NCBI GenBank assembly: GCA_004335835.1
Contig: RWJK01000419.1
Span: forward strand, 30,006-94,005
Direction of reading: 5' to 3'
DNA from: Scenedesmus sp. ARA3
Lineage: Eukaryota > Chlorophyta > Chlorophyceae > Sphaeropleales > Scenedesmaceae
Length of the DNA stretch: 64,000 bases
Positions 1-63,064 of the stretch are shown one piece after another; position 1 is the stretch's first letter; every line of letters starts with the position of its first letter. The notes beneath the pieces were generated by a model, which was not told the origin of the DNA, made no database searches, and saw only the letters and a list, made by a program, of their open reading frames with translations. The translations under genes were made by a program, and so were the position numbers.

Positions 1-3000
1 GGCGTGTTTGACTGGCTGCAGCAGCAGGGCCGCCTGGCCAGCCTCATCCGCCAGGTCAGCAACCCCATGGCGGGCTGCGACACAACGCTGCTGGCGCTGG
101 CGGGCTCGGGGTTCAGCGCGCGGCGCGCGTTTGGCTTCATGAGCTGCGAGCGCGTGGTGGGCGCGGCCGAGGGCATGAACGTGCTGCAGGTGCGCTGGGG
201 TTGTAATACATTGTGGGTGTGGTTGCTGTGATTTGGACACTGTGCATGTTATTGACATGTCCCGCCATAGCTATTGTATCCTGCATCCAGTCTTTCACTC
301 TACATGCGGCTGCTAGCAGCGCAGCTCCACCCCCGCTGCATTGCCCGTTTGCAACGGATCCCCTTCTGTTACCTACAAGGTTGAACCTGTTTGTGCAGGA
401 CGCGCTGCTGCTAGAGGGTGGCGCCTGAAAGTTGCCTATGCCACCACACCATGAAACAGTGCGCAGTTACACATGTTGTTGATGTTCCACTTGTGCTTGC
501 AGGAGCGCAAGGTGTGGGTAGAGGATGCCTCTCTGCCCGAGGGCGGTTCCTGGCAGTTCGACTACGCCATCACCAACGTAGAGTACACCGAATTCGAGCG
601 CCTGGGCATTACGGACCAGCCAATGCACGAGGGCAGCAGCCACAGCGCCTTTCCTGCGAACACAAATATTCTGTATGTGGGCCTGGCTGCTGCGCGCGCT
701 GCTGTGGAGGCTGCGGTGGCGGCTGGCGGCGGGGAGGTGATGCCAGGACTGATCTTCAACCTGAAGAAGAAGGTGAGGCGGCGGCTGCTGCTGCTTTGTT
801 TTTGTCTTGTATTGGTTTCTTGTATGCTGATTTTCTTGTTTCAGCGTGTAGGCATCACTGACCAGGTCATGCACGAGGGCAGCAGGCACAGCGCGTTTCC
901 TGCGGACACAAACATCCTGTACATTGGGCTGGCGGCTGTGCGTGCTGCTGAGGCGGCGGCGAGGCAAAGCGTGAAGTTCTCGCTGCACCTGCCCTGCCCT
1001 GCTGTTTTCAACGTCCAGGTGAAGTTCTTTGACCCGTTTTTCCAGGAGGAGTGCGAAGTTCACAGCGCCATCCCCTTCCTGCTTGTAATCACCCCTCCTG
1101 CACTCTTCTTCTCACTTCTCCCAACTTTCAGGTGAAGTTCTTCGACCCGTTCATCCAGGAGGAGCGTGAAGTTCGCGCCGGCCGCATGGAGTGCACCATG
1201 CAGAACCTGGCAGACTCCCTCACCAGCCGCAGCGCAGCAGCGCTGGCGGGGCCGGGCGCAGGCCCTGGGGCTGAGCAGGCGCTGATGAAGCGGCTGAGCA
1301 CCTTCATGGTCTACAACATGCGCCGCAAGGTGGGCGTTGTGCAACATTTTATCACTGGTGTGTTTGGTTCGCTGCCGACAGTTGTGTGTGGTTTGCATTG
1401 GAGGCTGTGTGCTGCAGCTGCGGTGGCAACGTCGTGTTGCAGGAACAGGGAGGATCGTGCGCGTATGATCTTAATGTATCTGCTGCTTGCTGAAAGCGGC
1501 AGCGCTGCACCTCGAGTAATGCTTGGCAGACTGCGTAGCTGGGCCTCACCATGCTGCCACCGCTGCTGGTGCTGCTGCTGCTGCTGCCAGGTCACGTCCT
1601 CTGCCAAGAAGAAGCGCGACCCCCGCAGCAGCCACATCCACCAGACGCCCGAGGGGGCCTTCTACGACCTGCAGCGCAACGCATGGCAGGTGCGCACGTG
1701 TGTGTGTGTGTGTGTGTGAGAGAGATAATCCAGAGCAGCTGTACATTTTTGAACTATGCATGTGCACGTGGGTGCTCATCGCCACGTCTAAAGCACCAAG
1801 TCATGCTGCACAGGTTTGTGCTGGTACCTGCCTCAACCACTGCACAGCTTTTGTGTACCCATGCATGCTCCCACTCATCAAGCCTGCAAATGTGCCCCCA
1901 TTCCACGGCTCTGCAGGTGCGGCAGCGCTGCGGCATGCGCCATGTGCCGCCAGTCGGTGACGTGGGCGAGTACATCGCCCATCAAAAGACTTTTGCTGTC
2001 CCTGAAAACTTATATCTCCATGCATTGCCGTGTGCAGGTGCTGCAGCGCTGCGGCATGCGCCACGTGCCGCCGGACGGTGACGTGGCCGAGTACCTCACA
2101 CATCATAACATCACTTTTGGATGCTTATTAAAGCCTTGCGTGTCATTTACGCCCCTGCAGGTGCTGCAGCGCTGCGGCATGCGCCACGTGCCGCCAGTGG
2201 GTGATGTCGCCGAGTACCTTACACAAGGCCCCGGCTTCATCTTCCTCTTCCACCCAGCGCCGACACTGATTCGATCAAAATGTTTTTTGCTGCAAGTGCT
2301 GCACCAGCGCTGTGGCATCCGTGCCGCCAGTGGGGAGTGTGAGCTCCTGCCTTGCCCGTCAACATCAGTTTCAATTGCTTGATAAAGCACTACATGTCCC
2401 TGCATTGCCGCGTGCAGGTGCTGCAGCGCTGCGGCATGCGTCACGTGCCGCCAGTGGGTGATGTGGCCGAGTACCTCACACAAGGCCCCGGCTTTATCTT
2501 CCTCTTCCACCCAGCACTGGGCCCCCTCTGGGATGTTATTTCCCAGAAGATCCGCGGCGGCGCGCTGCTGGACGGCTCAGAGCTTGTGCTGGAAGTTGCA
2601 GAGGCACGGCTGCTGGATGTAACAGTGGATGGCAGCTTGCTAATCCACGCAGGCAATGTAATGGGCCACCTGGAGCAGCAGAATGCGGCAGATGCCAGCA
2701 GCAGCAGCAGCAGCAGCAGCCGGCTGCAGTATAGTGCGGCCAACGGGCGCGTGCACCTGATGAACGTCACGGTGCAGAACGTGGGCGTGGATTGGCACCA
2801 CCCGGGCAACTGCTACTGGCAGCACCGCGTGAACCGGCACGAGGCGTGCAGGGTGGTGCTGCACGGGCGCAGCGAGTTTGAGGCATACGACTGCAAGATC
2901 AGCGGCGACCAGGTGGGCTGTGAACCTGTGTTTTCACTGGTGGTTGGGATTCATATGTGCAATGCTATGCAATGACTTTGCATTGCTGAAGTGCTGGGCG

Positions 3001-3499
3001 CAGCGAGTTTGAGGCATACGACTGCAAGATCAGTGGCGACCAGGTGGCTGTGAGCCTGTGTTTCGTGTGCGTGTGTTTATTGTCTGTAGGTTACTTGCAG
3101 GTAGTCTGTGCAGTTTTAACTGAGGGATGTTATTTTAAGCAACAACTTAAAGAATGCTGCTGCTCCGTCCTAGCTGCTGGCATCCACGTTCACCCACTGT
3201 GTCCAACACTGTGTTGCTGTCTCCACTCGATTTGCTCTTGCCCGCAGGTGTTCGAGGTGCCAGACGGCTTCCGCATGGTCGTCACAGCAGCAGGCAGCGC
3301 GGGCGGCCTGTCCGTGCAGCTGCTGCCACTGCAGGGCGACAAGCCCACCTGGCAGTGGGCCTACAGCATGGAGCCCTCCGGCGCGCTGCAGCTGCAGTTT
3401 GTGCGCAACGCTGCGCTTGACCTGTGGAGCTCCCCTGTGCTGGCTGCAGCACGCAGCCGGCAGCAGAACGAGGAGGAGGTGCTCGACTTTGTCATCTAG
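1..3499 (+). CDS. UGP3: UGP3-type plastid UDP-glucose pyrophosphorylase, 3' part
   Basis: Plant UGP3 makes UDP-glucose from UTP and glucose-1-phosphate in the plastid, feeding sulfolipid synthesis (family knowledge). The gene is cut by the window edge. Supported exons are 1-189, 503-772, 1132-1329, 1591-1689, 2418-2912 and 3248-3499, all phase 0, giving 500 codons to TAG. Family landmarks in order are NPMAGCDTTLLALAGSG, FPANTNILYV, MECTMQNLADS, VTSSAKKKR followed by HQTPEGAFYDL, then FLFHPALGPLWDV. After these comes the beta-helix-like tail with VDGSLLIHAGNVMG, CRVVLHGRSEFEA and VFEVPDGFRM. A short Ser run from AGC repeats (about 2697-2720) lies inside the fifth exon. Partial copies of its exons lie in the introns (see the repeats), and the copies beginning 1917, 2038, 2161 and about 2296 are not used because they lack the downstream LGPLW part. 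The start and N-terminal catalytic half lie outside the window. Confidence 0.9.
1019..1060 (+). repeat. Upstream echo of UGP3 exon 3 start
   Basis: Encodes VKFFDPFFQEECEV directly after a CAG, against VKFFDPFIQEEREV at the true exon start at 1132. A further copy of exon 2 coding (GITDQVMHEGSRHSAFPADT) lies at about 844-962, downstream of the true donor at 772. Confidence 0.85.
1917..2395 (+). repeat. Four upstream echoes of UGP3 exon 5 start
   Basis: Copies of the acceptor plus the exon start encoding VLQRCGMRHVPPVGDVAEYL begin at 1917, 2038, 2161 and about 2296; the true exon begins at 2418. Spacing is roughly 120-135 bp. The first three keep the CAG acceptor and an open frame but run into intron sequence. 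The fourth is frameshifted. The copy at 2161 is longest and continues to GPGFIFLFHPAP before diverging. Confidence 0.9.
2997..3042 (+). repeat. Downstream echo of UGP3 exon 5 end
   Basis: Encodes GRSEFEAYDCKISGDQ followed by a GT, repeating the last residues and donor of the exon that ends at 2912. Confidence 0.9.
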
Positions 3500-7526: not shown

Positions 7527-7577
<51 letters not shown>

Positions 7578-10168
7578 CTACTGCAGGGGCTTCCCTGTGC
7601 AGCACTTTGCCTCCAACCGTGCCGGCCTGGTGGTGGCATTCTGGGGCTGGGCGCTGCTGCTGGGCAGGGTGCAGATCAGCCAGACCGACTGGAACAGCAA
7701 GGGCGAGGTGTTTGGCTCCATCTTCAACCACGTCACCGTGGGACGCTTTGCTGACGGTGAGTGGCGGGGCTGCTAGTTGGTGCTTTGAGGCTTACCGTAG
7801 CCTGCAGTGCGGCCACCTGCATTGGCACTCGGCGCCATCTGTAAACATGTCAATGTGGGACGCTTCACAGACAGAGAGTTGATGTGTTGCTTTGCTGTGA
7901 TCTTCAACCACGTCACTGCGGGCGCTTCGCTGGCGGTGAGTGGCGGGGCGGTAGCTGGTGGGTCGCACCCCTGCTGGCAATGTGTATGTTACAATTCAGT
8001 TACGCACGTTAGCTGGTGGTGTCAGTCCCGTGCATCAACTGATGCGTCACTTTTTCGGCAGTGTTCCCTTGCCCATGTCAGTGGCTGCGCCCTGCTGGCA
8101 GTCTGTGGACAGCATGCTGTGGCTGCAGCAGATGTGATGCAGCTGTACACAGCGATGCTGTGGTGATGCTTGCCTACGCAGTGGCAGGCACAGCACGTGA
8201 CGCCTTCAGACCTGACAGAAGATGACATGATGCTGCTGCTGCTGCTGCTGCTGACTGCAGTGTACACTGAGCCTCACAATGAGTACACCAAGAAGGGCGA
8301 TGACAAGAAGCTCTCCTTCCACAGCGACCAGGTGAGGCTGCTGCCTGCAACGCATTCTGAGCGGCTTCATGTTATTATCTTTGCTTCATGCCTGCAACCT
8401 GAAGCAGTGGGCCTACTTTGCACAGCATAAGTGATGGTCTGGGCAGGTGTGTGTAGAGAACAACCGTCCTGTACATGGCGGCATCAAGTGCTGACAGCTG
8501 GGGCAGCTAATCAAGGGGAGCAGTAGATGCAGCCTCCCGCCCTGAACAGGGAAACTGCTGCCGTGCTGAGATATGTAGTTGTACAACAACTAACCCATGG
8601 ACCAACCTGCTGCTGCTGCCACCAGGGCGCCACCGACCTGATCGCGCTGCTGTCGCTGAGTGCTGCCAAGGAGGGTGGCGAGTCGCAGCTGGTGTCGGCC
8701 ATCGCCATCCACAACGAGCTGCTGCGGCGTGGGCGCAAGGTGCGCACCAAATACGACATACAATCAGATTGATGTCATTGCGATATAGGTTTGCTGTACA
8801 TTGTCTTTTCTTATGGCGGCTGGTGTCAGCCCTTGCCAACCACAGCGAGCTGGCGCTGCAGGGACGTGCAAGGTGGGTAGGTTGGGTGAGCTCATGTGAT
8901 GGCAACGTATGTGTGACTCACAATCTGCAGTGCGCGCAGCACACATGTAGCACTCTGTGCAGTCTTGTACAGCTGAACACATGAGCTGGAGGTGAACAGC
9001 GTGCAGCCCTAAACCATCGTGCCCTTTACCGCTATGCTTTATCAGCTAGCCGCTTCTGTATATGCCTTCTCCCCTGCTTTCACCCCGTGCGCTGACACAT
9101 GCAACATGTCATGTAACATGTTGCTCTGCCTGTTATGTAAGTGTCATGTGGCATGACCTGATGGAGGTTCTGTCCACGCCAGGCATCTGGCACACGGCCA
9201 ACAGGAGACTCCAGGCATCCGATACACCTCCCAAAACATATAACATGTTACCTCCTAATTGTTACAGATTTATATCATGTTACTTGCTGCTTGTTATTCT
9301 GTTGTGTAACAGGACCTGGTGGAGGTGCTGTCCACGCCAGGCATCTGGCACACGGCCAAGCAGGAGACGCAGCGCAGTGCCCTGCCTAATGCTGATGGCA
9401 GCTATGCTGACTATGAGGAGACGCAGCCATTTGAGTACCATGGCGGCTACCTGAGCGTGCATTTTGGTGCCAGGAAGTTTGCAGGTGTGCTGTGTAGGGA
9501 AACGAGGGTTTAGAGGCTTACGGTCAGGGTTGATGGATTGTTAAGTTGCGACCATGTGACCACCATGGCGGCTACCTGAGCGTATGTTTTGCGGCCGGAA
9601 TGTTTTGAAAGTGAGCGTATACACAGCATCTCGTACTAAACAGAAGTACTGGCCATAGCATCCCATCGATGACCAGTTCTGTGTGGCGGCACTGCTCGCA
9701 TCATGTGCTCTGCTCATGTGGCTGGCAATCACTGTGTGCTTGCAAATCAGCAGGACTTTTGATCCACTCAGTCCTTGTCCCTCATCCTCACTCACTGTGT
9801 TTCCACTTTCTGACTCCACTGTTTTCCTGCACACTGCAGACACCGCCAAGCAGCTGGCCCCCCTGCAGGAGGAGGCCATCTGGGCAGTGGCTGCCATCGC
9901 TGAGGACCCCGCCTTCCACCTCAGCCTCAAGCTGGTGCCGGGGGACGTTGAGCTGCTTCGTGAGATGCGATGTTTGTGTTGTTCAATTGATTACTCGTAG
10001 AAGGAACATATGCTTGAGTATAACCATTCAATGATTCTGAGAATGACTTCACACAGGGGCAGGTGTAGACCTACCTATAGGTAAGTGTATGTACATAGGC
10101 ATGGAATGGATGGTCCCTGCCTTCATGAGGTGGTTGACGGCATCAACCGCCACCTGCTTGCTCACATG

Positions 10169-35535: not shown

Positions 35536-38024
35536 CTAGTAATGCGGCACCGGCCCGGCCCCTCTGCCGCCGCCCCTGCCACCCCCAACCGCCCCCACCC
35601 CAGCCTCCCCTCGGATATACCGCTTGCAGATGCCCATGATGTATGCGGGCAAGTTGCGCACGCCTGCCATGCTGTTGCCTCCCAGCTCATCTAGCACTGC
35701 CAGAGCATCATCATGCGGTAGCCGCTCCAATGTTGCTACAACGCCCTCGTCAAAGTGCTCCGCACGCAGCAGCGGCGCGTGGTCCCTGCGCAAGCAAACA
35801 GACACACAACAGGGACTGGATGACACCATGGGAGCTGTGATGAGGAGGCAGCCGCTCCAATGTTGCTGCAACGCCTTCATCAAAGTGCTCCGCGCGCAGC
35901 AGCGGCGCGTGGTCCCTGCGCAAGCAAACATACACACAACAGGGACTGGATGACCACATGGGAATTGTGATGAGGAGGCAACCGCTCCAAGGTTGCTACA
36001 ACGCCCTCGTCGAAGTGCTCCGCGCGCAGCAGAGGCGCATGGTCCCTGCGCAACTAGAAAACCACACAGCAAGTGTAAACGAAGTTGTTGGGCCGTCGTC
36101 TGGGGCAGCCGCTCCAGTGTTTGCCGCCGTCGCCGCCACCGTCACCATCAACATTGCCAACGTATCAGCCGTCGCCATCATACCAAACAACTTGATGGTG
36201 ACTTGATGCATATACATACAACCCTGACATCAAAGTTGCAGCACACCGCGCACCTGCACAGCTCTTCTGCTTTGGCGCGCTGCGCAGGCGGCAGCAGACG
36301 TATGCCCGTGGCCCGCGAGGCGTGGCCGTCTTACAGCCGCCGCCATCACCGCCCCCGTAATCTCCGCCGCCATGCCAGCCGCCACCCAAAAGCCCCTCAC
36401 CGCATTGCGGTGTCTTGATGCAAACGCACCACCCAAAACCCAAACTGCAGCGCATCTCTCACCTGCACAGCTCCTCTGCTTTTGCGCGCTGCGCAGGCGG
36501 CAGCAGACGTATGCCTGGCGCGCGCGGCGTAGCAGTCCTATAACAGCCACCACTGTCATCTCCGCCGCCGTGCCAGCCACCACCCGAAAGTCTCAAACAC
36601 CATCACATCAATTTGACGCAAACGCACCACCCAAAACCCACTGCAGTGCTTCTCATACCTGCACAGCTCCTCTGCTTTTGCGCGCTGCGCATGCGGCAGC
36701 AGATGTATGCCCGGCGCGCGCGGCGTGGCCGTCCTATAGCCGCCGCCATCGCCATCACCATCATCGCCGCCGCCATGCCAGCCGCCGCCGCGGCCGCCGC
36801 CTGGTGGGCCGCGGCCCCTGCCCCTAAACCCTCCCTTGAAACCTCCTCCGCCGCGGCCGCCGTAGTGGTCATCACCGCCGCTGTCATACCTGCGTGGCAG
36901 GATTGATGTGCAGTGGAGCGACAGCAAGCATTTTGCTGTGAGAAAGGCTGCCTTCACAGAAGCCCGCTGGCAAAAGTGGCCTGGTGTTTTCAGAGTTATG
37001 GCCAGTAAACATACACAGCAAGAAGATCAAATGGAAGCCCCTGGTACCATCGTAGATGCCATGGCAATGTAACATAGTAACAATGACATGCATTTGAAAA
37101 GGGGCAGTGCCGTACCTGTCGTAGCCCCTGCCACCCTAGCCGCCCCTGCCCGGCGGCCCCTGATGGCCCAGGAGGTGCAGTGGCAATGCAACACACAAAA
37201 TGTGGCTAAAGTTGTTGATGTGTCCAGGCTTATCGCCCGTAAACATACACGTGGACATAACAAAAATGGACATGTCATTGTACAATGATGATAAAAACAT
37301 CAAAAAGGAACAGTGTCCCACCTGTCGTAGCCCCTGCCCCCATAGCCGGCCCAGCCCGGAGGCCCCTGGTGGCCCAGGAGGTGCCGTGGCAATGCAACAC
37401 ACAAAATGTGGCTAAACTTGATGTGTCCAGGCTTATCGCCGGTAAACATACACGTGGACATAACAAAAATGGACATGTCATTGTACAATGATGATAAAAA
37501 CATCAAAAAGGAACAGTGTCCCACCTGTCATAGCCTCTGCCCCCATAGCCGGCCCTGCCCGGAGGCCCCTGGTGGCCTGGGGGGTGGCCCGGCAGGTGCC
37601 CCGGCACCACCTTGCGCACCACAGACTGGCAGCAGCAGCAGCAGCAGCAGCGGTGGTGAGCATGGCAAAGACAGTGGCTCCAAGAGCAGCAAGCGCACAG
37701 CCTGCAGCAGGGCGGATTCAGCGCATATGGTGTGTACAGCCGCTGCAGCAGTACAAGATGCACAAGACAATGCACACCAACCCATGCATGCGCGGCACAG
37801 CGGCTAACAGGTGTCAAATTTTAGTTTTGTTTGGTGTAGCAACAAGCCACGCATAAAAGGCCTCTTAGGCATCTCACCATGAAGTACGCGTTGATGTTGC
37901 GTATCTGTGCGTGTGGGTTGAGCAGCGCCTGGCCTGCATCGTCAATGATGGCCAGTGCCTCGGGCGCAGGCAGCTCAGCCAGCACCTGCCACACCTTGTC
38001 ATCAAGCATGCTGACCTGTGAGGT

Positions 38025-44700: not shown

Positions 44701-46537
44701 ATGGTTCGCTGTCAGCAGGCATTCAGGTGTGCATTTCGAGCTGTTTCGGTCATCTAGTTTTACACAGTACTGCTGCTGATCTCTTCTCTTTGGCAGGGCC
44801 CTGTCTGCAGCTCTCAACCAGGCAGCAGCGGGCTTGCGACAATATTCCCAGGTAACCACTTTATACGCTGCTGATCTAAGCACGTTGCCTCTTAAAACGT
44901 CGTGAAAGCACATCAGATATTTTCCTGTTTCCGGATGCATCCCGTGCCATGCCACGTCGAGTTGACGAGAGCCCTACATCTCGGTCGTTTTGCAACTTCC
45001 CGATCTGGTTGCAGGCAGCACAGCCGGCTGTGTTCGTGGACAAGAACACAAAGGTTATTTGCCAGGGTATCACGGGCAAGAACGGCACCTTCCACACAGA
45101 GCAGGTCAGTGAGCAGCAGGTCCTGCTGGTGCTGAGGAGCAGCATGTTGATCTGCTACGCCGTGCTCACGCTGTCTGCAGCGCCATTGCACCCGGCAGTT
45201 GTTTTCTATGCAGCTGTCTGTCCTAGAGTCGCAAGCACAGCTCCCTTTACAGCTACTTCTAGTTGCCGCTTCACTGCGGCATGGTTCACTTGCCTCATCG
45301 GCCCTGCCGAGTCCCTAAATACCAACAGTCATCCAACCCAGCCTCAGTCACTTCCTCCCACACAACAACACCCTGCTACCGCGCCCGCCACAAACCATTG
45401 CAATTCCTTCACACTCACCGCACCTTCCTGCAGGCAATCGCCTATGGTACGCAGATGGTGGGTGGTGTCACCCCCAAAAAGGGAGGCACCACTCACCTGG
45501 GGCTGCCAGTGTTCAACTCAGTGGCCGATGCCAAGGCAGCAACCGGCTGCAACGCCACAGTGATCTACGTGCCGCCGCCGTTTGCAGCAGCAGCGATTCT
45601 GGAAGGAGTCGAGGCTGAGCTGGACCTGGTTGTGTGCATCACAGAGGGCATCCCGCAGCACGACATGGTGCGCGCATACATTATGTGTGATGTTGTTCTT
45701 GCTTTTCAGCAGCAGCTAGCACTACTGTGTGAGAGCCAGCAGCATGGGCTGCAGCGGCCAAGCATCCCTGTTTGATTATACAAGCAAAATAGCGGTGCAG
45801 TGTGAGCAGCAGCAGCAGCAGCAGCAGCAGCCATCCTGGAGGGCGTTGAGGCTGAGCTGGACCTAGTGGTGTGCATTACTGAGGGCATCCCGCAGCACGA
45901 CTGGTTGGTATCTGTGTGATGTTTGCTGTTTGGTTTGTTTAAAGCACAGTCAAGCAAGTAACAGCACGGGGCGGGAAGCAGCCGGGGGAGCGGCAGCTGC
46001 AATGGGTGGACAGTGTTTTGCATACGGCGACGTCGCAAGTGGCTAGCAGCCCAGTGAGAGCAGCAGCAGGGGTTGTAGTGTGGGCTGGCAGCAGGGGGTG
46101 AGGCTGAGCTGGACCTGGTGGTGTGCATCAGAGTGGACATCCCGCAGCACGACATGTTGTTCGTTCAGTGTGAATGCAGCAGCAGCAGCAGCAGCAGCAG
46201 CGGCGGCAGCAGTGGCAACGAGGGCAACAACAGGCATAGCATGTCATGATGTGCCAATGTTCATCTAGCAGCTGGCAGTGCAGCAGCGACTACAGCAGCA
46301 GGAGCAGCAGCACGGCGTAATGCGTGAGCGTGCAGCTGGTAGATAGCAGCTCAGTGAGAAGAGCGGCGGCAGCGGCAGCAGCAGCAGAGTGTTTTGTGTG
46401 ATTGGCTGGGTAGGTGGCTGGGTGGGTGACTGGTTAGCTGCCACCCACTGGTGGTGGTGGTGGTTGCTTTGAAATGGGGGCAGCTGGCGACCAACGTGTT
46501 TGGATTTGCATACAGCCTGCAGTCATCCATGTGCATT

Positions 46538-47008: not shown

Positions 47009-49159
47009 AGGGCTACATCCACAAGCCAGGAAAGATCGGCATCGTGTCGCGCTCAGGCACACTCACCTACGAGGTGCGCAGCAGCAGCAGAGGCAGCAGC
47101 AGCAAGAGGCAGTCGCCGCAGCAGCAGCTGCAGCAGCAAACTTGGTAGCACTGTCCTCAATGTTCAGGAAATCAAGCCGGCAGCAGCTCTTTTGCCTTCT
47201 TAGCAGATAGGGTCATGAATTTGGTGGTGCCCCGTCTTCTCTCTGTGAAGTACGTATTTAATGCAATGTATATGCTGCAGGCCGTGTTCCAGACCAGTGC
47301 GCAGGGCCTGAGCCAGTCCACTGTGGTGGACATAGCAGTGTCTGGCAGGAAGTACGGAGATGAACACTTGTACCATTGTGCTATTTTCTCTTTTGTCCTG
47401 CAGGCCGTTTCCCAGACCAGTGCGCAGGGCCTGGGCCAGTCCACTGTGGTGGACATAGCAGCGTCTGGCAGGCAGTATGGAGATCAACACTTGTGACATT
47501 CTACTTTTTTCTCTCTGTCCTGCAGGCTGTGTTCCAAACCAGCGCGCAGGGCCTGGGCCGGTCCTCAGTGGTGGCATAGCAGTGTCTCAGGCTGCAGCTT
47601 GCAACAAACCATCACCCTCCTGGTGTTCCACGCTCTTCTCTTTCGCAGGCTGTGTTCCAGACCAGTGCGCAGGGCCTGGGCCAGTCCACGGTGGTGGGCA
47701 TAGCAGTGTCTGGCAGGAAGCACGAATTTATACACTTGTAACATTCTGAAATTCTCTCTCTGTCCTACAGGCCGTGTTCCAGACCAGTGCGCAGGGCCTG
47801 GGCCAGTCCACAGTGGTGGGCATTGGGGGTGACCCCTTCAACGGCACCAACTTTGTTGACTGCCTGGAGAAGTTTGTGAAGGACCCACAGGTGATGGTTT
47901 GCATAGTCCTCTGCGGTTTTGTGTTTTTATTCCTGCTTCTGGCTGTTTCACACTGCCTTCCAGGGCACCAAATTTGTGGACTGCCTGGAGAAGTTTGTCC
48001 AGAACCCACAGGTGAGGAATTCGACTTGCAAAGGTACGTGGGTGGTTGGGCACCTACCTACCTACCTACCCACCTACCTGCAAAGGACCCCTGTTTGGCC
48101 CTGCTATCCTGTTATGACGGGCAGGGGACCCCTCCAACGGCACCATGATGGATGTGCTGCAACATGCCGGTTCTTTTGTATCTGTTTCTGCTGCTGCTTA
48201 TTCTGCTCTTGTGCAGGCCAACACCAGCTGCTGCATCTGTCGGAGCAGCACCGACATGCGCAGCACATTCAACCAAAAACATGCCGCTGCTGCTGCTGCT
48301 GCTGCCGCTGCTGCAGACCGAGGGCATCATCATGATTGGTGAGATTGGTGGCACAGCGGAGGAGGAGGCTGCAGAGTTCATCAGGGCCTCAGGCACACAG
48401 AAGCCAGTGGTCTCCTTCATCGCAGGTGAGGGCGGCGGTGTTATCTGATAGCTAGCTGTGTAACTATGTAATGTAATGTGATGTAATGTAATGTAATGTA
48501 TGTGACTCGGTAGCCAGCAGCCAGGGGCTTCTGGTACAGCCGGTGACGGCAGTGGTGCGTTGTAAACATTGTTTAGCATCCAGCAGCCAGTTGTGTCCTT
48601 CATTGCAGGTGAAGGCAGTGCTGTCAAGTTCCTTAAAAGTCAACATCCAGATGACTCTTGTTCTGTTGCATCCAACCCTTTGACCCTTGTTCTGCAGGCC
48701 TGACCGCGCCGCATGGGCCACGCGGGTGCCATCATCAGCGGAGGCAAGGGCTAAGCCTCAGATACAATCATGCCAATCTCTCATTTCCACTAAATCAAGT
48801 TCTGTTGCGTCCCCTTCATGGCTGCTGCCACGCAGGCCTGACCGCGCCTCCTGGTCGCCGCATGGGCCATGCTGGTGCCCTCATCAGCGGAGGCAAGGGC
48901 AAGGCCACAGACAAGATCACAGACAGTCCTCGCCTGCACTAAACCATGCTCTGCCACATCCAACTTGTGCTGTGCTGCAGGCCTGACCGCGCCTCCTGGT
49001 CGCCGCATGGGCCATGCTGGTGCCATCATCAGCGGAGGCAAAGGCAAGGCCACAGACAAGATTGCTGCTCTGGAGGCTGCAGGCGTCACCATCAGCCAGT
49101 CACCCGCGCAGATGGGCGTCACCATGAAGCGCGTGATGCAGGAGCGCGGGCTGCTGTGA
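44701..49159 (+). CDS. SCLA1: Succinyl-CoA ligase (ADP-forming) subunit alpha, mitochondrial
   Basis: The alpha subunit of the TCA-cycle enzyme that interconverts succinyl-CoA and succinate with ATP formation, working with a beta subunit in the mitochondrial matrix. Exons are 44701-44726, 44797-44851, 45015-45104, 45434-45667, 46604-46708, 47011-47073, 47771-47890, 48317-48425 and 48981-49159, for 326 aa. The first 27 residues ([20 protein letters not shown] then GLRQYSQ) form an Arg-containing presequence. The CoA-binding N-domain has [14 protein letters not shown] and [11 protein letters not shown]. Next come [58 protein letters not shown] and [14 protein letters not shown]. The phosphorylated active-site His is H279 in [15 protein letters not shown]. 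Length is normal for the family. The first exon rests on phase, ATG and splice sites. Four decoy copies precede the seventh exon. Confidence 0.95.
45830..46160 (+). repeat. Downstream echoes of succinyl-CoA ligase exon 4 end
   Basis: [20 protein letters not shown] (true exon ends 45667) recurs at about 45832-45903 almost intact. A second copy at about 46098-46156 is altered ([11 protein letters not shown]). Confidence 0.92.
47281..47770 (+). repeat. Four upstream echoes of succinyl-CoA ligase exon 7 start
   Basis: Copies of acceptor plus [15 protein letters not shown] start at about 47281, 47404, 47527 and 47650, each 121-123 bp apart, then the true exon at 47771. All four extra copies depart from the exon at the same point (CATAGCAG followed by TCTGGCAGG or a variant), so one junction was amplified. 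The first two are joined by an open frame; the third has a one-base deletion. Confidence 0.93.
47960..48013 (+). repeat. Downstream echo of succinyl-CoA ligase exon 7 end
   Basis: Encodes [16 protein letters not shown] then GTGAGG, against [16 protein letters not shown] at the true end 47890. Confidence 0.92.
48580..48950 (+). repeat. Echoes around the last intron of succinyl-CoA ligase
   Basis: A downstream echo of exon 8 end (VVSFIAG plus donor) lies at about 48588-48615. Upstream echoes of the last exon start at about 48699 (a deletion of several codons, then a stop) and about 48837 ([20 protein letters not shown]). The true exon starts at 48981. Confidence 0.9.
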
Positions 49160-49197
49160 ACTACTCGGTTGGAACAGCTGTGAAGTTCACGGTTTAA

Positions 49198-49275
49198 GGC
49201 GTCACCATCAGCCAGTCACCCGCGCAGATGGGCGTCACCATGAAGCGTGTGATGCAGGAGCTCGGGCTGCTGTGA
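49198..49275 (+). repeat. Copy of succinyl-CoA ligase C-terminal coding end after the stop
   Basis: [20 protein letters not shown] plus the end and stop is repeated 39 bp after the real stop, with one R-to-L change. Further fragments of the same end run to about 49410. Confidence 0.9.
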
Positions 49276-49410
49276 AGTTCGCAATGAGTCCTGCTGTGAA
49301 GTTCGCAGTGAGTCCTGCTGTGCAAGTTGCAGCGAGGCGTGCTGCAGCGCTGTAACTTGCAACTGGCCGTTATTTTGAAGCGCGCGCTGAAGGAGCGCGG
49401 GCTGCTGTGC

Positions 49411-50734: not shown

Positions 50735-53073
50735 ATGATGCTCGGCAAGCCAGCAGCAGCTCTCCGCTTCACTCCTCACGCCCAGGCCTCTCGCAGTCGC
50801 CCGTTTGCCCTGAAGGCAGTCATGGCTCCTGCTGCTTCTGACATCAGTTATGACCAGGCAGCTGGTGTGTTCGCCATCACTTTCTTTCATTAGGGTTTCC
50901 TGTGTGCTGTGGCAGCAGCAGCAGGGCAGCAGTACGTGCAGCTGCAGCTAATACATATGGCATGGACGACCAACTGACAGCAGCATAGCATCTGAGATGC
51001 ACTTGAAAAAGCATTAAGTCAACTGTTTCAATCAACAGCGGTGTGTTCATGATTGTTATCTGCTTCTGCTCTGCAGGGCCCCTGCCAGCCATCACCCCTC
51101 CTGAGTTGCCGCCTCAGGTGCGGGACTCCTCCCAGCTGAAAGTTACCAGGTGAGGCAGCACGGCAGGTATGGTGGTGCTGCAACCTTGTTGATCGTTGCA
51201 GATGATTTGTTGCTCATGTTTAATCGGAGCCAGTACATGGCAAGCTTGACACCTGGCAGTGCTGTCAGCTGCTTGCCGCCAGGCATCAACAACACAGTTC
51301 GCTCATGCGGTGCCCTGCATGTTATCTCCTGCAAGCAGCCAGGTTTCAGTGGAACCCTATACCCCTGTGGGAGGGTTCAGATGCCTCTAATGAATGCTGC
51401 CTGTGTTGTGATATCTGCGAGCAGACAGGGTTTTGTGAAGCCATATACCCTGGTGAAGGGCCCACATGCTGTTCTGGATGCTGCCTGTGCTGCCATGATA
51501 TAATTTACTGCAAGCAGGCAGGGTTCAGTGGAGCCGTATACCCTTGTGGAGGGTCCGGAGGCCTGGTATGGGCGCGACTACCAGCACAACATTGACCAGT
51601 GGGCCATCACATTGAGTGAGACACACATTGCTGAGCTGGATGCTGCCATTGAGAGAGTGCTAGCAAACAAGACCATCACACAGGAGGGCAACTACCTGCA
51701 CCTGGTGAGCACAAAATAACATATAATAACGCTTAGTAGTTTGCACCTGTGCTGCCTGATGCTGCCATTGAGAGAGTGCTGGCAAACAAGACGATCACAC
51801 AGGAAGGCAATTTGCTATACCTGGTGGAGCCTGCGTGTCTTGTTGCATGAAAGAGTTGTGGCCTGTGATGATGAGCTGGGTGCTGCTATTGAACTCGCCA
51901 CTGAACTCGCGCTTGCCAACAAGACCATCACGCAGGAAGCCAACTACCTTCACCTGCTGAGTAAAAACTGCCTGCGATGATGCAGCATGGTTTAGGGTTA
52001 TGCTGCATCGTTGACATGAACGCTGTCACTGAGAGAGTGCTGGCAAACAAGACCGGCACGCAGCTGCAGGAAGGTAATTAGGCTGCGAGCTGCATGCAAC
52101 GCTGACATAGGATTGCTGCTGCTGCTGCTGCTGCTGCCGCTGCTTTCGCTGCTGCTGCTTCTTCTGCTGCTGCTGCTGCGCTGCACAGATCAACAGCGTC
52201 ACCAAGGAGGACTTCCCACTGGAGACGCTGGGGCCTATCCTCAAGGAGGTGCAGCAGGAGGTGAGCAGCAGCTGCAGCATACAAGGCCATCTGCTAGCAC
52301 AGCTGCTGTCAGCTGTAGCACCTCCGCAGCTGTGGCTCGCTCGCTTCCGCTGCCTCCGTTGTTTCGGTGTAACTTCTGACCCAATCAACTGCTGTTGCCT
52401 TCCTGCATGCTTCCACTGCTTGCGGCCAGGTGCTGCGTGGGCGCGGCTTTGCGCTGCTGCGGGGCCTGCCAGTGGAGCGCTGGAGCCGCCAGCAGACACT
52501 CATCGCCTACTGGGGCATCGGCTTGCACTGGTGCGTGGCTTTTGGTGTTTTCGGAATGAACCTGCAACTAGCTGAAATGATAATATGCGGCATTACTTGT
52601 GTAACTGCCTGCTGTGACTGATGCTACTCTGCAGTAGCGACTCCCCCCCTCCTCCCCCACAGACACGCAAAAGGAAGCAGCTGGTCTCGTGCACACATCA
52701 TCAACGCAAAATAAACATTGTTTCACTATACTGCTCAGTCTGAACCGCCTGCTTGCTTTGAACATGCAGGGGCAACCTGCGGGGCCAGAATGAGAAGGCA
52801 CAACTGATCGGCCACGTGAAGGACGCGGGCAGGCGTCCAAGCACGGCAACATTGCACCCTGCTCAGCCTGCTGCATCATGAAAAAATTTGTTGCTGTGTG
52901 CATGCAGGGGCAACCTGCGGCGCCAGAATGAGAAGGCACACCTGATCGGCCACGTCAAGGATGTAGGTGTGGACTCCAAGCACCAGAACCCCACCACGCG
53001 CATCTACCTCACCTCAGTGGCGCAGCCATGGCATGTGGACGGCACTGACGTTGTGGGTGAGTGCAGCTGGTTG

Positions 53074-53130
<57 letters not shown>

Positions 53131-54738
53131 GTTCTGCATCTACCTCACCTCAGTGGTGCAAGAGCAGTTTGATCTTGGGGCTTACTTGAACATCAAGACT
53201 GTGCTGTTTTGCTGCTAACTGGGCTGATTGCTGGCTTAACTTGCAGGCCTGCTGTGCCTGAAGACTGCTAAGGCAGGCGGCAAGAGCAGCCTGGCCAGCA
53301 GCGTGACCATCCACAACGAGCTTCTCAAGAGGGACGCGGAGATCGTCAAAACACTGGTGAGTCTGCTGCCGACATAGCATGCGCTGTGCGTGCTGTCATG
53401 GGTCTGCTCATGCTAGAACTCCCATGACAAATCAGGGCACAAGACGGCGGCGGCATACAGCAGCACGCTTGCCAGTCACTGCGACACTGCGAGGCTGCGG
53501 CAGGTTATCCTAGAACCAAACAAGTCGCTTGGATAGGAAAAACTGTGGCATTTTTACAAGCTGGATGTAGGTTGATGTGCCTGCCGGCTGCTGCTGCTGC
53601 TGCTGCTGCATCAGGCTGGCACCTGGTACATGGACCGCAAGAATGAGGTGCCTGAGGGCAAGCTGCCCTACTACGTGCTGCCAGTGGTGCACTACCACCA
53701 GGGCTACCTGGCCACCAGCTTCAACGGTGAGCCATGCAGCAGCTGACAGTATCAAATTTGATTAGTATCAAGGCTTCGAATGTCTGTCCGTGGTGCACTA
53801 CCACCAGGGCTAGCTGGCCATCAGCTTCAAAGGTGAGCCACTGAGTCTGGTCATGTGTCAACTTTGAGGCTCTCTCCCATAGAAAAACCTGAAAAGGCTA
53901 GCAGCAACTGCAGATGCGTGCGATGTAGTGGTTGTAGTGGTTGTAGATGTAGTTGCCTGTGGTGCGCCAGTGTGAAGGCTACCTGGCCGCAAGCTTCAAC
54001 GGTGGATGCTGACAGCTGCTGCAACCCAAACACGCAAACTCATAGCTGCAGCACACGCATTGCAGTTGCATTATGCATACGCCTATTGCACGCTAGCAGC
54101 CACGTTGACAATGCATCTTACGGACCAAGCGATCATCTGAAATAACTGTTTTGTTATCTGTGCATCTTGTGCAGACGCCCACTACCAGCTGACAGCAAAA
54201 CCTGGCCGCCACCCTGCCACCTTAATCAGACATTATTTGTAATAATTTGTTTTGCCTTTTCTTGACGTGGTGCAGACACCTACTACCAGCTGGCAGCCAC
54301 ACCTGGCCGCCACCCCGGCGTGCCGCCCCTGACTGACGCCCAGGTCAAGGCCCTGGCAGCATACAGGTGAGGGTGCTAGCAGGTCTGTTGGGCAGTTGCT
54401 GCAGGGCTGTTGGGCAGTTGCTGCGTGGAATTGTGCCTGCAAGTGAATCTGTAATGACCTGGCAGACGCCCAGGTCAAGGCCCTTAGTAGCACGACCCTG
54501 GTGGATTGGCAACCAGCGTGGTGAAACAGCATGGCCTTTTTGCTTGAACAGCCTTGGATTCTGGCTGCAGCCGGGCATGCTCACACGCCAAGAGTCACAA
54601 ATGCATCAATGGCAGCTGCTGCTGCTGCACTGTCTGCTTCATGCAGAAAGGTGGCTGACAGCATTGCGCTGGACTTCTGGCTGCGGCCAGGCATGGATGC
54701 ACACACCAAGGCACAAAACACAATGATATTGTCTAACA

Positions 54739-57613: not shown

Positions 57614-58511
57614 ATGGCGAACGCAAACCTGCCAGCGACCCCACATGGGTTCGAACTCTCCACCGCATCCTCTCGCAGCCTTGATGCGGAAGTCGTGGTA
57701 GCAGATGGCGATGTGGGCAAAGGTAAGATCGCGCCCGCGTGCAGCAGCAGAGCGCAGGGCACGCACTGCACGTGCCGTTCCCTTTGCTCCCAGCACTGCA
57801 GCCACGCAGTCTTTCACTCAGCTCACGTTGCCAAACATATCCCGAACATGTCAACATTAGTTGATTATTTATACACTTTTTCAACGAAATAATGTATTTG
57901 CAGGCGCAGTGCTGCCGTATGATGTCAACAGCGAGGCCGAGCTCGACCAGTACCAGGCAGCAGGCACACCCGCCAAGAAGGTCGGCAGGGTGCCGTGGTA
58001 CCAGCGGCTGCTGTGGGAGGGAGGCAGGCCCTTTGACGCCTTCCTGACCATTGTTTCAGCTCAGGTGGGTTATCAGAACCACACCTATGAACAAGGAGTG
58101 CCTGTACTGCTGAGCCTGTGACACCGCTGACCGCTGTGGGAGGGAGGCAGGCCCTTTGATGCCTTCCTGACCATAGTTTCAGCTCAGGTGGGTGCTTGAA
58201 TTGCTCAGCATCCAAAGAGGCGCCTGTATTGCAATGTTGCTGGTTTGAACCAGCTGACACTGCTGCTGCTGCTGCTGCGCCAGCTGCAGCTGGCGAAGGT
58301 TCACCAGCTGGCAGGCGGCAGGTTGTCAGTGAGAGCTGAAGCGCACCAGATGTGTGCTGCATGCATTGGCTGCTGCTGCTACTGCTGCTGCTGCTGCTGC
58401 TGCTCCTGCTGCTGCCGCTACAAGTGAGCCTAGCCATCCTCAACCTTCCCAACAGCATGGCCAAGGCGGGACTGCCCCTGGGAACATCACACTCAACCAC
58501 TTACAAGCCGA

Positions 58512-58565
<54 letters not shown>

Positions 58566-58693
58566 ATATTCTGCCGCTGCTGCTGCTGCCACACCACCAG
58601 GTGGGCCAGGTCATCCTTAACCTGCCCAACAGCATGGCTAAGGCAGGGCTGCCCCTGGGCACATCACACTCAGCCACTCACATGCCGATCCTG

Positions 58694-58732: not shown

Positions 58733-60838
58733 CAACTTCTGCCGTTGCGCTGCTGCCACACCACCAGGTGGGGCAAGTCATCCTCAACCTACCCAACAGC
58801 ATGGCCAAGGCGGGCCTGCCCCTGGGCACATTCTTCCAGCTGTGGGCTGCCGTGGTGTCCATGTACACGCTGTGGCTGCTGTCCATGCTGTACCAGGAGT
58901 TCAAGCGGCGCGCGGTGAGTGGTTGAAGGCGGCCTGCTGCTGCTGCTGCTGCTGCTGCAGCTGTGTCTGCATGCAAAGCAGCGCTTTGGGGCTGTTTTAT
59001 AATGTTGTACCAGGGGTGAGCACCGCTGAGCTCGTTCTGCTGCCTTGTTACGCTGTTGTGCCTGCGTTTGCCTTGCAGATCAAGGAGGGCAGCTGGTTCA
59101 ATGATGCTACGAGTGAGCGCCGCACCAAGGTCACGCAGTACCATGACGTCATCGGTGGTGTCACCGGCAGGTGAGATTACTGCCCGCAGCTAGCTGCACG
59201 CAGGCTAGCTGAGCAGCGGTGTATTCGCAGCCCCTTGTGCAGCAGCTGGATTCTGTGGCAGCAGCTGACCCAGACCCTCATAATACATTGGCTTCGGAGG
59301 GTGTGACTGCTGCCTTGCCAGCTCACAGCCTTACCTGATGCGAACGCCTGCTGCTGCTGCTGCCGCAGGCGCTGGTTGGGAGAGTTCGCTCGTGTGGTGA
59401 CTATTGTGGAGCTGGTGGGGCTGTGCGTGGCCCAGATCATTGCTGGCTCCAGCAACCTCTACACACTGCACTCAGCACTACCCAAGAGGTAAGCTGGATT
59501 TTGTGCAAAGTTGTCACTGCAGCGTGCGACACGATGCTGCATCCCAAATTTTAGCAACAGCCCTGCCTTTCCGCAGCAATCACTACATCAACAGCCTGAG
59601 CCGAATGTACAACAAAGGTGCTGCTGCCGCAGTCCTCTGCAGGACGTGGGCGTTTGGCATGGGGTCAATCACAGGGCTGATGGTGCTGGTGCCCTCTGTG
59701 CTCAACAAGCTGCTGCTGCTGCTGCTGCTGCTGTCCTCTGCAGGACGTGGGCATTCGTCAAGGGCTCGATCACAGGCCTCATGGTGCTGGTGCTTTCCAT
59801 GCATAACCTGCTGCTGCTGCTGCCTCTGCTGCTGCTGCTACTGTCCTCTGCAGGACGTGGGCATTTGCAATGGGCTCTATCGCAGGCCTGATGTTGCCAG
59901 TGCCCTCCATGCATAACCTGCTGCTGCTGCTGCCTCTGCTGCTGCTGCTGTCCTCTGCAGGACGTGGGCATTCGCAATGGGCTCTATCGCAGGCCTGATG
60001 TTCCCAGTGCCCTCCATGCGCGACAAGCTGCTGCTGCTGCTGCTGCCGCTGTCCCTGCTGCAGGACGTGGGCATTCATCATGGGCTCCATCACGGGCCTC
60101 ATGGTCCTAGTGCCCTCCATGCGCAACAAGCTGCTGCTGCTGCTGCTGCTGCTGCCGCTGTCCCTCCTGCAGGACGTGGGCGTTTGTCATGGGCTCCATC
60201 ACCGGGCTCATGGTCCTAGTGCCCTCCATGCGCAACATGCGCCTCTTCTCACTCTTCACACTCTTCACGACCACCTTCACAGCCATGTTCATGGTGGGAG
60301 CGAGCCTGAAGTCTGGCCTGAGCCTGGAGGCAGCGCAGCAGCCGCCACGTGGCACAGCTGACGTGTTCTCGGCGCTGGCAAACACCCTGTTTGCCTTTGG
60401 CAGTCACTGCATGCTTCTGTGAGTGGACCGCCGCTGCTGAGACAATGACTGCAGGTTCAGCATGACCCGTGTGCACGCCTGACAGGTTGATGTGTGATTG
60501 GCAGCAGGGATGTTTCTGATGTCAGCTAACATGGCTGTGCGCCGCGCGCACAGTGCAACGCAGGCAGTCCCTCACTGAACCCGTGCACCTGTCTTGAGCC
60601 AGTCCCCACTGTTGCCAGCTGCCTGCAGGCCTGCCTAGGCATTGCTGTCAGCGGCCTGGCTGCGTTGCAGCTGGTCCCAGTGATGACGCTGCACCTGCAT
60701 TCTGCACAGACGGGCACATCGGCAAGCGCAACACAAAGTCACTTTATATATCAGTGACATGGCACAACAAAGTACTGACATGACCTAGACCGGCTAAACC
60801 CTGCAAGTCTCTCAATATTCCCACTGTTGCCGCCCCTG

Positions 60839-60872: not shown

Positions 60873-62953
60873 AGTGAGGTGCTTGACAGCCAGTGGGCCC
60901 CCCGCAAGTTTACCAAGGCCTTCGCCTGGTCCCAGGTGTACGTGACGGGGTTGCTGACCTGGCCCAACGCAGCATTCACCTTCATGGCATTCCCTGTACT
61001 GTCATACAAGTTTGGTAAGTGGTTTTCAAATGTACCGTAGTGTCTTTTGAACTGCTGTTGCTGCATACATCAGGCGGATGTGACCCTGTTATGGTTGTCT
61101 ATAGCATCTCCTGTCCCCGACAAAACTGTTGAATGAATGAGCTACGCGTGGTGTGTTCACACTTAACACCCGCGTAAGTTAAGGAAGGGGACGTGTGTGG
61201 CGATGAGGGTACCTCATGCGCCTCCACGCCTCCTACCATCATCACAAAACTGTTTGCTTGTGCATGTCATTGTTCACCTGCAGATGCAGCCACTAACCTC
61301 TTCTGCTGCCGCTGCCGCCGCTGCTGCTGCTGCTGCCGTTGTCCCCTTATCCAGGCAACGCCTTTGCGGTGTACCCGCCAAGCACGCTCAAGTCTGTGGC
61401 CATTGTCACGATGGCGGTGCACCAGCTGACCGCCTTTGGCCTGTTTGTACACTCGCTGACCTTGGCACTGCTGTTGCTGCTGCTGCCGCCTCTTTCTGCA
61501 GGCAACGCGTTTGCGGTGTACCCGCCAAGCACGCTGAAATCTGTGGCCATTGTCACGATGGTTGTGGACCAGCTGACCGCCTTTGGCCTGTTTGTGCACC
61601 CGCTGTGCATCCTGTGGGAGAAGCTGCTGCGGGTGCACTACAAGCCCAACTGGATCAGGCTACCTGCACGCATCCCTGTCGGTGGGTTGCTCAATGCGTT
61701 GGATTGGTTCAGACTTTGAGGTCAGGTCTCTGAAACTGTTGCTGTTAGCAGCCTCTCACCAGTGTACGCCAGCCCAACTGGGTCCGGCTGCCGGCACGCA
61801 TCCCTGTCGGTAGGTGTTGGCCAAACCGAAAAAAAGCCCATGGGTTTCAGCTCAGTGCTTTGAGTTGGTCGCAATCAGCCCTCTCATATGGCCACTGTGA
61901 TTGCAGCACAAGCCTTGAGCGCTGAGCACTTGTGAGCATTTGGTCATCACCAGCAAGCTTACCTTGTCCAATAGAAGCTGTCTTTACTTCTCTTCAACTC
62001 GTGTTCAACACCTGATGATCCCTAACACTGCTCTTTCCTGCTATGTATGCGCCTGCAGCGCTGTTTGTGTGGTTCATCGCGCTGGCCATCCCTTTCTTTG
62101 GTGTGGTCAACGACCTGCTGGGCACCGTAACCTGCTGTCTGCGCCTGCGGTGTAAACCCTAAAACCTCCTGCATTGTGTGCTGTGCTTGCAGCACTGTTT
62201 GTGTGGTTCATCGCGCTGGCCATCCCTTTCTTTGGCGTGGTCAACGACCTGCTGGGCGCCTTCTGCGTGACCTTTGAGACCTTCATCCTGCCCCCGCTAG
62301 CCTTCAATCTGTACTACCAGGGCCGCCCAGACAGGCAGGCAGCCGCATTCCTCAAGCCAAGGTGAGTGCAGGCCATGTAGTGATTTGGTTCTGATGTTCA
62401 GCAGCCAATTTCAACCAATTGAGATAGAAACAACAGACATTTTTTTGGTGTGGTCAACGACCTGCTGGTTGCCTTCACAGCATATATTGTTCAAGGTGTT
62501 CTGCCAGGGGCGGCCTAACAGGCAGGCGGCCGCTTATTTCAAGGTGGGGCCTCTGAGGTTGAATCATAGGTTTCATGCCTGTGTTGATTCAATGGTGGAC
62601 AGCCCCATGCAGATACTATCTGCTGATATGTGATCTGGCCGTCCTGTTTCCACTGCTGAGCCCCAAGCGGCTCAGCTGGGTGGCGTACTTTGCCGTCAAC
62701 TGGTTCATCATTGCCACCACTTACCACTCACCTGCAAGCCATGGTTTGCCAAGTACTCACTAGTTCTCTGTGCTGTCTGCTGCTGCTGCCGCGCCGCAGG
62801 CGGCTCAGCTGGGCGGCCTACTTTGCTGTCAACTGGTTCATCATCGTTGCCACGCTGGTGGCTGGGCTGGGCTTTGGGGGCTATGCCAGCGTGAACGGTT
62901 TTGTGTCCTCGCTGCACAAGTTTGGATTCTTTGCCAAGTGCTACAACTGCTGA
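57614..62953 (+). CDS. LAX: AUX1/LAX-type amino acid/auxin permease
   Basis: AUX1/LAX proteins of the AAAP family import indole-3-acetic acid with protons across the plasma membrane in land plants (family knowledge); algal substrate unproven. Exons are 57614-57722, 57904-58064, 58768-58914, 59079-59170, 59369-59488, 60173-60418, 60875-61014, 61502-61681, 62193-62361 and 62800-62953, for 505 aa; Arabidopsis AUX1 is similar in size. Landmarks follow AUX1 in order: LLWEGGRPFDAF and NLPNSMAKAGLPLGT, then IIAGSSNLYTL and LPKRTWAFVMGSITGLM. Next are FAFGSHCMLLEVLDSQWAPR, DQLTAFGLFVHPLCILWEK and PFFGVVNDLLGAFCVTF, ending in GLGFGGYASVNGFV and FGFFAKCYNC. About ten to eleven membrane segments are visible. 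The N-terminal 60 residues are hydrophilic. Intron 5 holds five decoy acceptor copies. A plausible short exon at 59577-59617 is excluded on phase. Confidence 0.88.
58132..58192 (+). repeat. Downstream echo of LAX exon 2 end
   Basis: LWEGGRPFDAFLTIVSAQ followed by GTGGGT repeats the true exon end at 58064 almost exactly. Confidence 0.92.
58424..58690 (+). repeat. Two upstream echoes of LAX exon 3 start
   Basis: ILNLPNSMAKAGLPLGT begins at about 58434 (the copy runs from 58426) and 58602; the true exon starts at 58768. Both copies leave the exon at the same place and read into ACATCACACTCA and a long CTG tract. Confidence 0.92.
59643..60172 (+). repeat. Five tandem decoy acceptors of LAX exon 6
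   Basis: Copies of CTG tract, CAG acceptor and about 68 bases of exon start (TWAFVMGSITGLMVLVPSM in various states) begin at 59643, 59744, 59854, 59961 and 60064; the true exon begins at 60173. Spacings are 101, 110, 107, 103 and 109 bp, none a multiple of three. All extra copies leave the exon at the same point (CAACAAG or a variant, then CTG repeats). Confidence 0.95.
61355..61450 (+). repeat. Upstream echo of LAX exon 8 start
   Basis: GNAFAVYPPSTLKSVAIVTM after a CAG, matching the true exon start at 61502 for about 95 bases. Confidence 0.93.
61760..62135 (+). repeat. Echoes flanking LAX intron 8
   Basis: A downstream copy of the exon 8 end (PNWVRLPARIPV plus GTAGGT) lies at about 61768-61815. 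An upstream copy of exon 9 start (LFVWFIALAIPFFGVVNDLL) lies at about 62060-62128. The true sites are 61681 and 62193. Confidence 0.92.
62450..62725 (+). repeat. Echoes flanking LAX intron 9
   Basis: A decayed downstream copy of the exon 9 end (VVNDLLVAF, then QGRPNRQAAAYFK) lies at about 62452-62545. An upstream copy of the last exon (RLSWVAYFAVNWFIIATT) lies at about 62660-62722. The true sites are 62361 and 62800. Confidence 0.9.
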
Positions 62954-63064
62954 GCTTGGTCATCGCCACTGACAGCTGAGCTACAGCGAGTCAAACTGAT
63001 CCACGTGCTCCAGCTGATCAGCTCATGAGGGTTGCCTGCTTCTGCTGCGTAGGGCTTTCAAACT

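What the first reader, a model, noticed from the sequence alone, without database searches (positions are those of the whole stretch)
1..63000. Exon echoes: partial exon copies in introns, with a strict orientation rule
More than 50 partial tandem copies of exon edges sit in the introns of eight of the nine genes. A copy containing an acceptor plus the exon start always lies upstream of the intact exon; a copy containing the exon end plus a donor always lies downstream. I checked this at about 40 boundaries on both strands and saw no clear exception. It is what repeated small tandem duplications across a splice site would leave if only those preserving the outer, intact exon survive selection. 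The density (several per gene) is unusual and would mislead gene predictors.
Basis: partly seen in the sequence, partly recalled or inferred. Interest (0 to 1): 0.88.

Follow-up and report, generated by a model that had tools for sequence, protein, structure and literature searches.

The report
Exon-edge copies in algal introns
In this green alga short stretches that straddle exon edges have been copied repeatedly into the neighbouring introns, leaving decaying look-alikes beside the real splice sites, which lengthens the introns and could confuse gene prediction.

Summary
Of 39 exons that I located in seven genes (Tetradesmus obliquus or a very close relative), 29 have a partial copy in neighbouring non-coding sequence: 63 copies. 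All 29 copies with an acceptor lie upstream of the intact exon; all 18 at an exon's 3' end (17 donors, one stop codon) lie downstream; 16 carry no recognised edge. Shuffled windows give no such repeats, and 9 of 11 loci from other contigs have them. The orientation rule is mostly geometry: a local direct duplication across a splice site must leave the partial copy on that side. Best reading: recurrent local duplication, typically 100-150 bp, across exon edges, then near-neutral decay. In three protein-confirmed genes all 21 repeat families touch an exon, and 35-45% of intron sequence lies between outermost copy and intact exon; without it mean introns would be 235-333 bp instead of 425-511. 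Unexplained: intron halves look far older than exon halves, and intron-only repeats are absent. One deposited T. obliquus protein isoform includes two copies, so some may be spliced. Single cases are known (potato RdRp); the density is unusual. Other algal genomes could not be compared.

The parts
1941..1976 (+). copy upstream of exon 2418-2699 (UGP3-like gene), no edge recognised
2038..2102 (+). acceptor copy upstream of exon 2418-2699
2161..2258 (+). acceptor copy upstream of exon 2418-2699 (96% alike)
2296..2334 (+). acceptor copy upstream of exon 2418-2699
843..942 (+). internal copy downstream of the matching part of exon 518-772
1019..1061 (+). acceptor copy upstream of exon 1132-1224
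2996..3043 (+). donor copy downstream of exon 2721-2912
7900..7937 (+). donor copy downstream of exon 7672-7756 (TauD-like gene A)
8816..8866 (+). donor copy downstream of exon 8626-8738
9155..9209 (+). acceptor copy upstream of exon 9313-9474
9552..9599 (+). copy of the end of exon 9313-9474, downstream (edge not fixed)
29747..29936 (+). two copies (29747-29802, 29872-29936) upstream of exon 30010-30258 (proton-pump-interactor-like gene)
30334..30376 (+). donor copy downstream of exon 30010-30258
31098..31125 (+). acceptor copy upstream of exon 31225-31436
31500..31552 (+). donor copy downstream of exon 31225-31436 (95% alike)
31642..31695 (+). second donor copy downstream of exon 31225-31436
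31916..31957 (+). copy upstream of exon 32024-32344
32793..33100 (+). three acceptor copies (32793, 32915, 33041) upstream of exon 33168-33354, period about 122-126
35847..36044 (-). two acceptor copies (35847-35914, 35982-36044) upstream of exon 35608-35784 (hnRNP-Q-like gene)
38330..38678 (-). two copies (38330-38367, 38547-38678) downstream of exon 38800-38958
41401..41453 (-). donor copy downstream of exon 41663-41783
45833..45903 (+). donor copy downstream of exon 45434-45667 (succinyl-CoA ligase alpha gene)
46100..46156 (+). second donor copy downstream of exon 45434-45667
47281..47701 (+). four acceptor copies (47281, 47404, 47526, 47649) upstream of exon 47771-47890; the first two are in a deposited isoform
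47956..48011 (+). donor copy downstream of exon 47771-47890
48581..48610 (+). donor copy downstream of exon 48317-48425
48700..48917 (+). two acceptor copies (48700-48762, 48838-48917) upstream of exon 48981-49156
49197..49407 (+). two copies (49197-49266, 49376-49407) of the last exon's end, downstream, in the 3' flank
51767..52063 (+). three copies (51767, 51911, 52006) downstream of exon 51573-51704 (TauD-like gene B)
52771..52823 (+). acceptor copy upstream of exon 52908-53056
53136..53160 (+). internal copy downstream of exon 52908-53056
53784..53831 (+). donor copy downstream of exon 53618-53726
53954..54000 (+). second donor copy downstream of exon 53618-53726
54174..54214 (+). copy upstream of exon 54275-54366
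54458..54484 (+). copy downstream of exon 54275-54366
54551..54692 (+). two copies (54551-54576, 54648-54692) upstream of exon 54789-54897
58133..58187 (+). donor copy downstream of exon 57904-58064 (AUX/LAX-type transporter gene; 97% alike)
58424..58664 (+). two acceptor copies (58424-58487, 58601-58664) upstream of exon 58768-58914
59644..60128 (+). five acceptor copies (59644, 59745, 59855, 59962, 60065) upstream of exon 60173-60419
61354..61458 (+). acceptor copy upstream of exon 61503-61681
61771..61811 (+). donor copy downstream of exon 61503-61681
62058..62126 (+). acceptor copy upstream of exon 62193-62361
62440..62533 (+). two copies (62440-62476, 62490-62533) downstream of exon 62193-62361
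62662..62717 (+). copy upstream of exon 62795-62950

Best explanation
Stretches that straddle exon edges are repeatedly duplicated next to themselves, in direct orientation, mostly with a spacing of 100-150 bp. The spliceosome keeps using the site that is joined to the rest of the exon, so the partial copy is stranded in the intron, upstream for acceptors and downstream for donors. Later duplications next to the exon add further copies, so a row of copies records earlier states of the exon. The copies then decay without clear constraint. Shown: the copies, their side, their spacing, their presence in other contigs, and roughly even change over codon positions in changes private to one copy. 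Inferred: the duplication step itself, the order of events, and splicing of the intact copy in this strain (deposited proteins of T. obliquus have the intact exons, but I saw no RNA).
For: 101 of 101 direct matches lie within 1000 bp, with 1 inverted match and 0 in five shuffles. After reduction to 108 pairs in window plus 11 loci, 70 have an offset of 100-149 and 6 are below 100. 29 of 29 acceptor copies are upstream and 18 of 18 3'-end copies downstream. Deposited T. obliquus proteins P0002 and P0121, and P0139 (metatranscript-type source, no species name given), match the intact exons. Changes private to one copy other than the most diverged: 12/18/24 at codon positions 1/2/3, 21 synonymous and 33 not; changes shared by two or more copies, which mark the exon's own past: 5/3/30. 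In three rows (33.0, 35.8 and 58.5 kb) spacers and cores of the copies are similarly diverged, as whole-unit tandem duplication predicts. Outer flanks of outermost acceptor copies still resemble the intact flank: mean z 1.81, SE 0.59, against other loci.
Against: Donor copies: the intron beyond the match is no more alike (3 of 15 with z above 2) than the exon side (4 of 15), and the mean z against other loci is only 0.92, SE 0.29; at the divergence of the exon part (about 7% at codon positions 1 and 2) a simulation expects z of about 12. Spacers of neighbouring copies are unrelated beside the exons at 31.3, 51.6 and 53.7 kb and for the third copy at 47.5 kb. In three complete genes 21 of 21 repeat families touch an exon and none is intron-only, where random placement gives 13.5. 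Raw differences between copy and exon favour codon position 3 (77/73/206; pN/pS 0.265) and, collapsed per locus, still do (73/70/171); copies have 2 stops where 5.8 were expected and fewer gaps than intron repeats (4.0 against 17.8 per kb). So weak constraint on some copies is not excluded.
Confidence: 0.7

Rival explanations
1. Templated insertion: during repair of a break in the intron, a piece of 40-100 bp that spans the exon edge is copied into a nearby site, so that only the piece and not the spacer is duplicated. Rows of copies arise by a later tandem step.
For: Abrupt ends of the match on both sides at donor copies; unrelated spacers between copies that share their ends; clean intron stretches of 16-27 nt within the match at some loci, then no likeness.
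Against: Residual flank likeness at acceptor copies and whole-unit rows; does not say why intron-only copies are missing.
Confidence: 0.25
2. The copies are working alternative exons kept by selection.
For: A deposited T. obliquus isoform, P0001, carries 60 extra residues made of the first two copies of the succinyl-CoA ligase exon. Copy acceptors are nearly as strong as real ones (median 9.2 against 9.7). Third-position bias, few stops, few gaps.
Against: No opposite splice site at the inner end of the copies (mean percentile 0.49 and 0.57 of random). Copy donors are weakened (median 5.0 against 10.7). Private changes are spread nearly evenly over codon positions. In this assembly the site that would end the isoform's extra exon reads GC, not GT. 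Whether P0001 rests on RNA is not known to me.
Confidence: 0.1
3. Assembly artefact: pieces of a diverged haplotype woven into the contig.
For: Contig-level assembly with some N runs.
Against: Only one place in the genome, in this contig, matches the succinyl-CoA ligase protein (10 matches). Rows of up to five copies at a steady period. The 60-residue stretch with two copies is in another group's T. obliquus protein with one residue different inside it.
Confidence: 0.04

Closest known systems
Tandem duplication across an intron-exon boundary in the potato RdRp gene (PMC4974935; abstract and passages seen)
   Same: The duplicate spans the end of an intron and the start of an exon; the upstream exon piece is left outside the intact exon.
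   Different: One event in one gene, which made a new intron. Here there are 63 copies beside 29 exons, and the deposited main proteins show no change.
[quoted passage not shown] Hellsten; reviewed in PMC3443670, passages seen)
   Same: Local direct duplication within genes, with splice sites supplied by the duplicate.
   Different: The classic model duplicates exonic AGGT and yields a precise new intron; here existing splice edges are duplicated and mostly left idle.
Internal gene duplications (Gao and Lynch 2009; not held; known to me from recall and from citations in the two papers above)
   Same: Partial duplications inside genes.
   Different: I could not compare rates or sizes.

Membership tests
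Tandem genomic duplication | copies are local and direct | tested here: met
   101 of 101 direct matches within 1000 bp, 1 inverted
Tandem genomic duplication | whole contiguous unit duplicated, intron part included | tested here: inconclusive
   seen in rows at 33.0, 35.8, 58.5 kb; faint at outermost acceptors; not at donors
Intron gain by duplication | the duplicate supplies a spliced new intron | tested here: inconclusive
   main deposited proteins ignore the copies; isoform P0001 uses two
Introner elements | similar sequences dispersed among many genes | tested here: not met
   no direct match in the window between places more than 1000 bp apart; the rest of the genome was not searched for this
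Cassette exons | splice sites at both ends of the copy | tested here: not met
   inner ends score like random intron positions
Lineage-specific excess | more frequent than in other chlorophycean genomes | not testable with these tools
   no other algal DNA held

The most novel reading that the evidence does not exclude
Exon edges themselves are the preferred target of a short-range copying process in this alga: copied pieces end near the splice site and about 55 nt inside the exon (median 55, quartiles 48 and 64, 47 copies), none of 21 families is intron-only, and copies of one edge can share both ends yet have unrelated spacers. Such a process would be tied to splicing or to exon chromatin and would be a new engine of intron growth.
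Probability: 0.2. Interest if true: 0.85.

Novelty: new variant of a known kind. Interest (0 to 1): 0.6.

Why it matters
If general in this alga, a mutational process makes a large part of intron length: in 24 introns of three genes 35-45% of the sequence lies between outermost copy and intact exon, and without it mean length would be 238, 235 and 333 bp. A published table gives a mean intron of 462 bp for T. obliquus against 230-302 bp for three other Sphaeropleales and Chlamydomonas (PMC5966456, passages). Each exon edge would carry dated fossils of its own past, ready decoy splice sites, and raw material for new exons and introns; gene predictors and short-read isoform calls would be at risk.

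Tried and rejected
Constraint on the copies: the first pooled count (pN/pS 0.265; third-position excess) suggested it. Splitting changes by sharing showed that much of the excess is the exon's own history counted in several copies, so I dropped it as the main reading, while some excess remains. Gene conversion from exon to copy was considered for the sharp match ends; I ran no test made for it, and equal divergence of cores and spacers in three rows does not call for it. Diverged haplotype as source: no second copy of the ligase gene found. Copies as complete mini-exons: not supported. Prior descriptions: nine searches of the paper library listed no paper whose title or abstract start describes this in an alga; the tenth was not used, and subscription journals are mostly not held.

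Full report
Setting. The window is bases 30006-94005 of one contig of an 87.3-Mb assembly in 1567 contigs. A protein joined from the ligase exons matches a deposited Tetradesmus obliquus protein, P0002, at 100% as rounded (one residue differs, K in the window and N in P0002). The transporter protein matches T. obliquus P0121 at 98%. So the source is T. obliquus or a very close relative. Pfam supports UGP3-like, TauD (two genes), hnRNP-Q-like, amino-acid transporter and succinyl-CoA ligase; it has no family for P0139, which I call proton-pump-interactor-like after names of its relatives. The label AUX/LAX-type is partly recalled; one relative is named auxin transporter 1.

The repeats. After masking short-period repeats (6,544 bases) the window shows 101 direct matches within 1000 bp, none beyond, and 1 inverted match. 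Shuffled windows give none. Eleven loci from other contigs, 89,017 bp, have 82 near and 2 farther direct matches, plus 5 near and 1 far inverted ones; two of the loci have no direct match. Reduced to 108 pairs, 70 offsets are 100-149 and 6 are below 100; pairs over 400 bp apart were left out of that reduction.

Exons and copies. 39 exon peptides read from open frames were each found once, most with a GT or AG at the edge. For three genes deposited proteins confirm the intact exons; the other four genes rest on my reading plus Pfam. Copies were taken from BLAST matches whose copy side lies outside exons, overlapping copies being merged and those under 25 nt dropped: 63 copies, 29 of 39 exons. 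Acceptor copies: 29, all upstream, at 15 of 26 known acceptor edges. 3'-end copies: 18, all downstream, at 14 of 32 scored edges, one of which is a stop codon. Ten exons have no copy in this count, though exon 37878-38015 seems by eye to have one hidden by masking.

Why the rule is strict. For any direct duplicate laid beside its source across an acceptor, the copy still joined to the rest of the exon is the downstream one. The rule therefore tests that the duplication is local and direct, which it is; it does not by itself show selection.

How the copies evolve. Exon-copy differences are 77/73/206 by codon position over 1123 codons, pN/pS 0.265, 2 stops (5.8 stops expected). Much of this is pseudo-replication: one change in the exon counts against each older copy. 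Changes shared by two or more copies are 5/3/30; changes private to one copy other than the most diverged are 12/18/24, close to neutral. Collapsed per locus the excess persists (73/70/171; ratio 2.39, bootstrap 1.80-3.13); a neutral copy beside a constrained exon predicts about 1.75 by the rates, just outside that interval. I read the copies as mostly unconstrained, with room for exceptions.

What does not fit a simple tandem duplication. The match runs a median of 55 nt into the exon but usually under 12 nt into the intron (22 of 30 outermost copies). Beyond that the intron of donor copies is no more alike than the exon side (3 of 15 against 4 of 15 with z above 2); for acceptor copies it is 10 of 15 against 1 of 15, reduced but not removed when other loci serve as control (mean z 1.81, SE 0.59; donors 0.92, SE 0.29). 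Simulated decay at the exon part's rate would leave z near 12. Spacers between copies are alike in some rows and unrelated in others (adjacent pairs summed: cores 124 of 808 different, spacers 320 of 916). In three complete genes all 21 families touch an exon; random placement expects 3.7 of 6, 5.3 of 8 and 4.5 of 7 (P 0.044, 0.028, 0.039). Either intron copies vanish much faster than exon copies, or copying favours exon edges, or both.

Splicing of copies. Copy acceptors score nearly like real ones, copy donors clearly less, and inner ends look random. Yet one of two deposited proteins with the same locus tag, P0001, has 60 more residues, encoded by copies 1 and 2 at 47281-47460 and then joined to the intact exon. 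Here the base pair after that stretch is GC rather than GT, so the isoform may depend on the strain or be an annotation product.

Weight in introns. The 24 introns of the three genes average 433, 425 and 511 bp; 14 hold a copy; 1564 of 3466, 1709 of 3823 and 1248 of 3579 bp lie between outermost copy and intact exon. Exon limits were trimmed by hand. The published T. obliquus mean is 462 bp, with 230, 302, 284 and 270 bp in the other four species of the table (passages). The agreement is suggestive only: three genes, and a span that includes spacers.

Verdict. A real pattern that also occurs in other contigs, ordinary in kind and unusual in density, with an open question about why exon edges are favoured.

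Noticed in passing
window 31225-31436: The intact exon reads TDMCFR near its end where both downstream copies (DMGFR, GTGFR) and deposited P0139 (DTGFR) have G: the copies seem to keep an older state, or the base is an error.
   Followed up: partly
window 49197-49266: The end of the last ligase exon with its stop codon is copied into the 3' flank, 97% alike.
   Followed up: partly
window, whole: CTG/CAG runs are very common, many of them in the introns and spacers of the copies.
   Followed up: no
window 7237-9474 and 51573-54897: Two TauD-type genes lie in one window.
   Followed up: no
window 47581-47644: Spacer of the third copy shares its first and last bases with the other spacers by eye, but aligns no better than shuffled with spacer 1 (0.44 against 0.44): a patch seems replaced.
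   Followed up: partly
L004:7177-8428: Three copies of a 103-104 bp stretch at 93-96% identity and 546-603 bp spacing, wider than the usual period.
   Followed up: no
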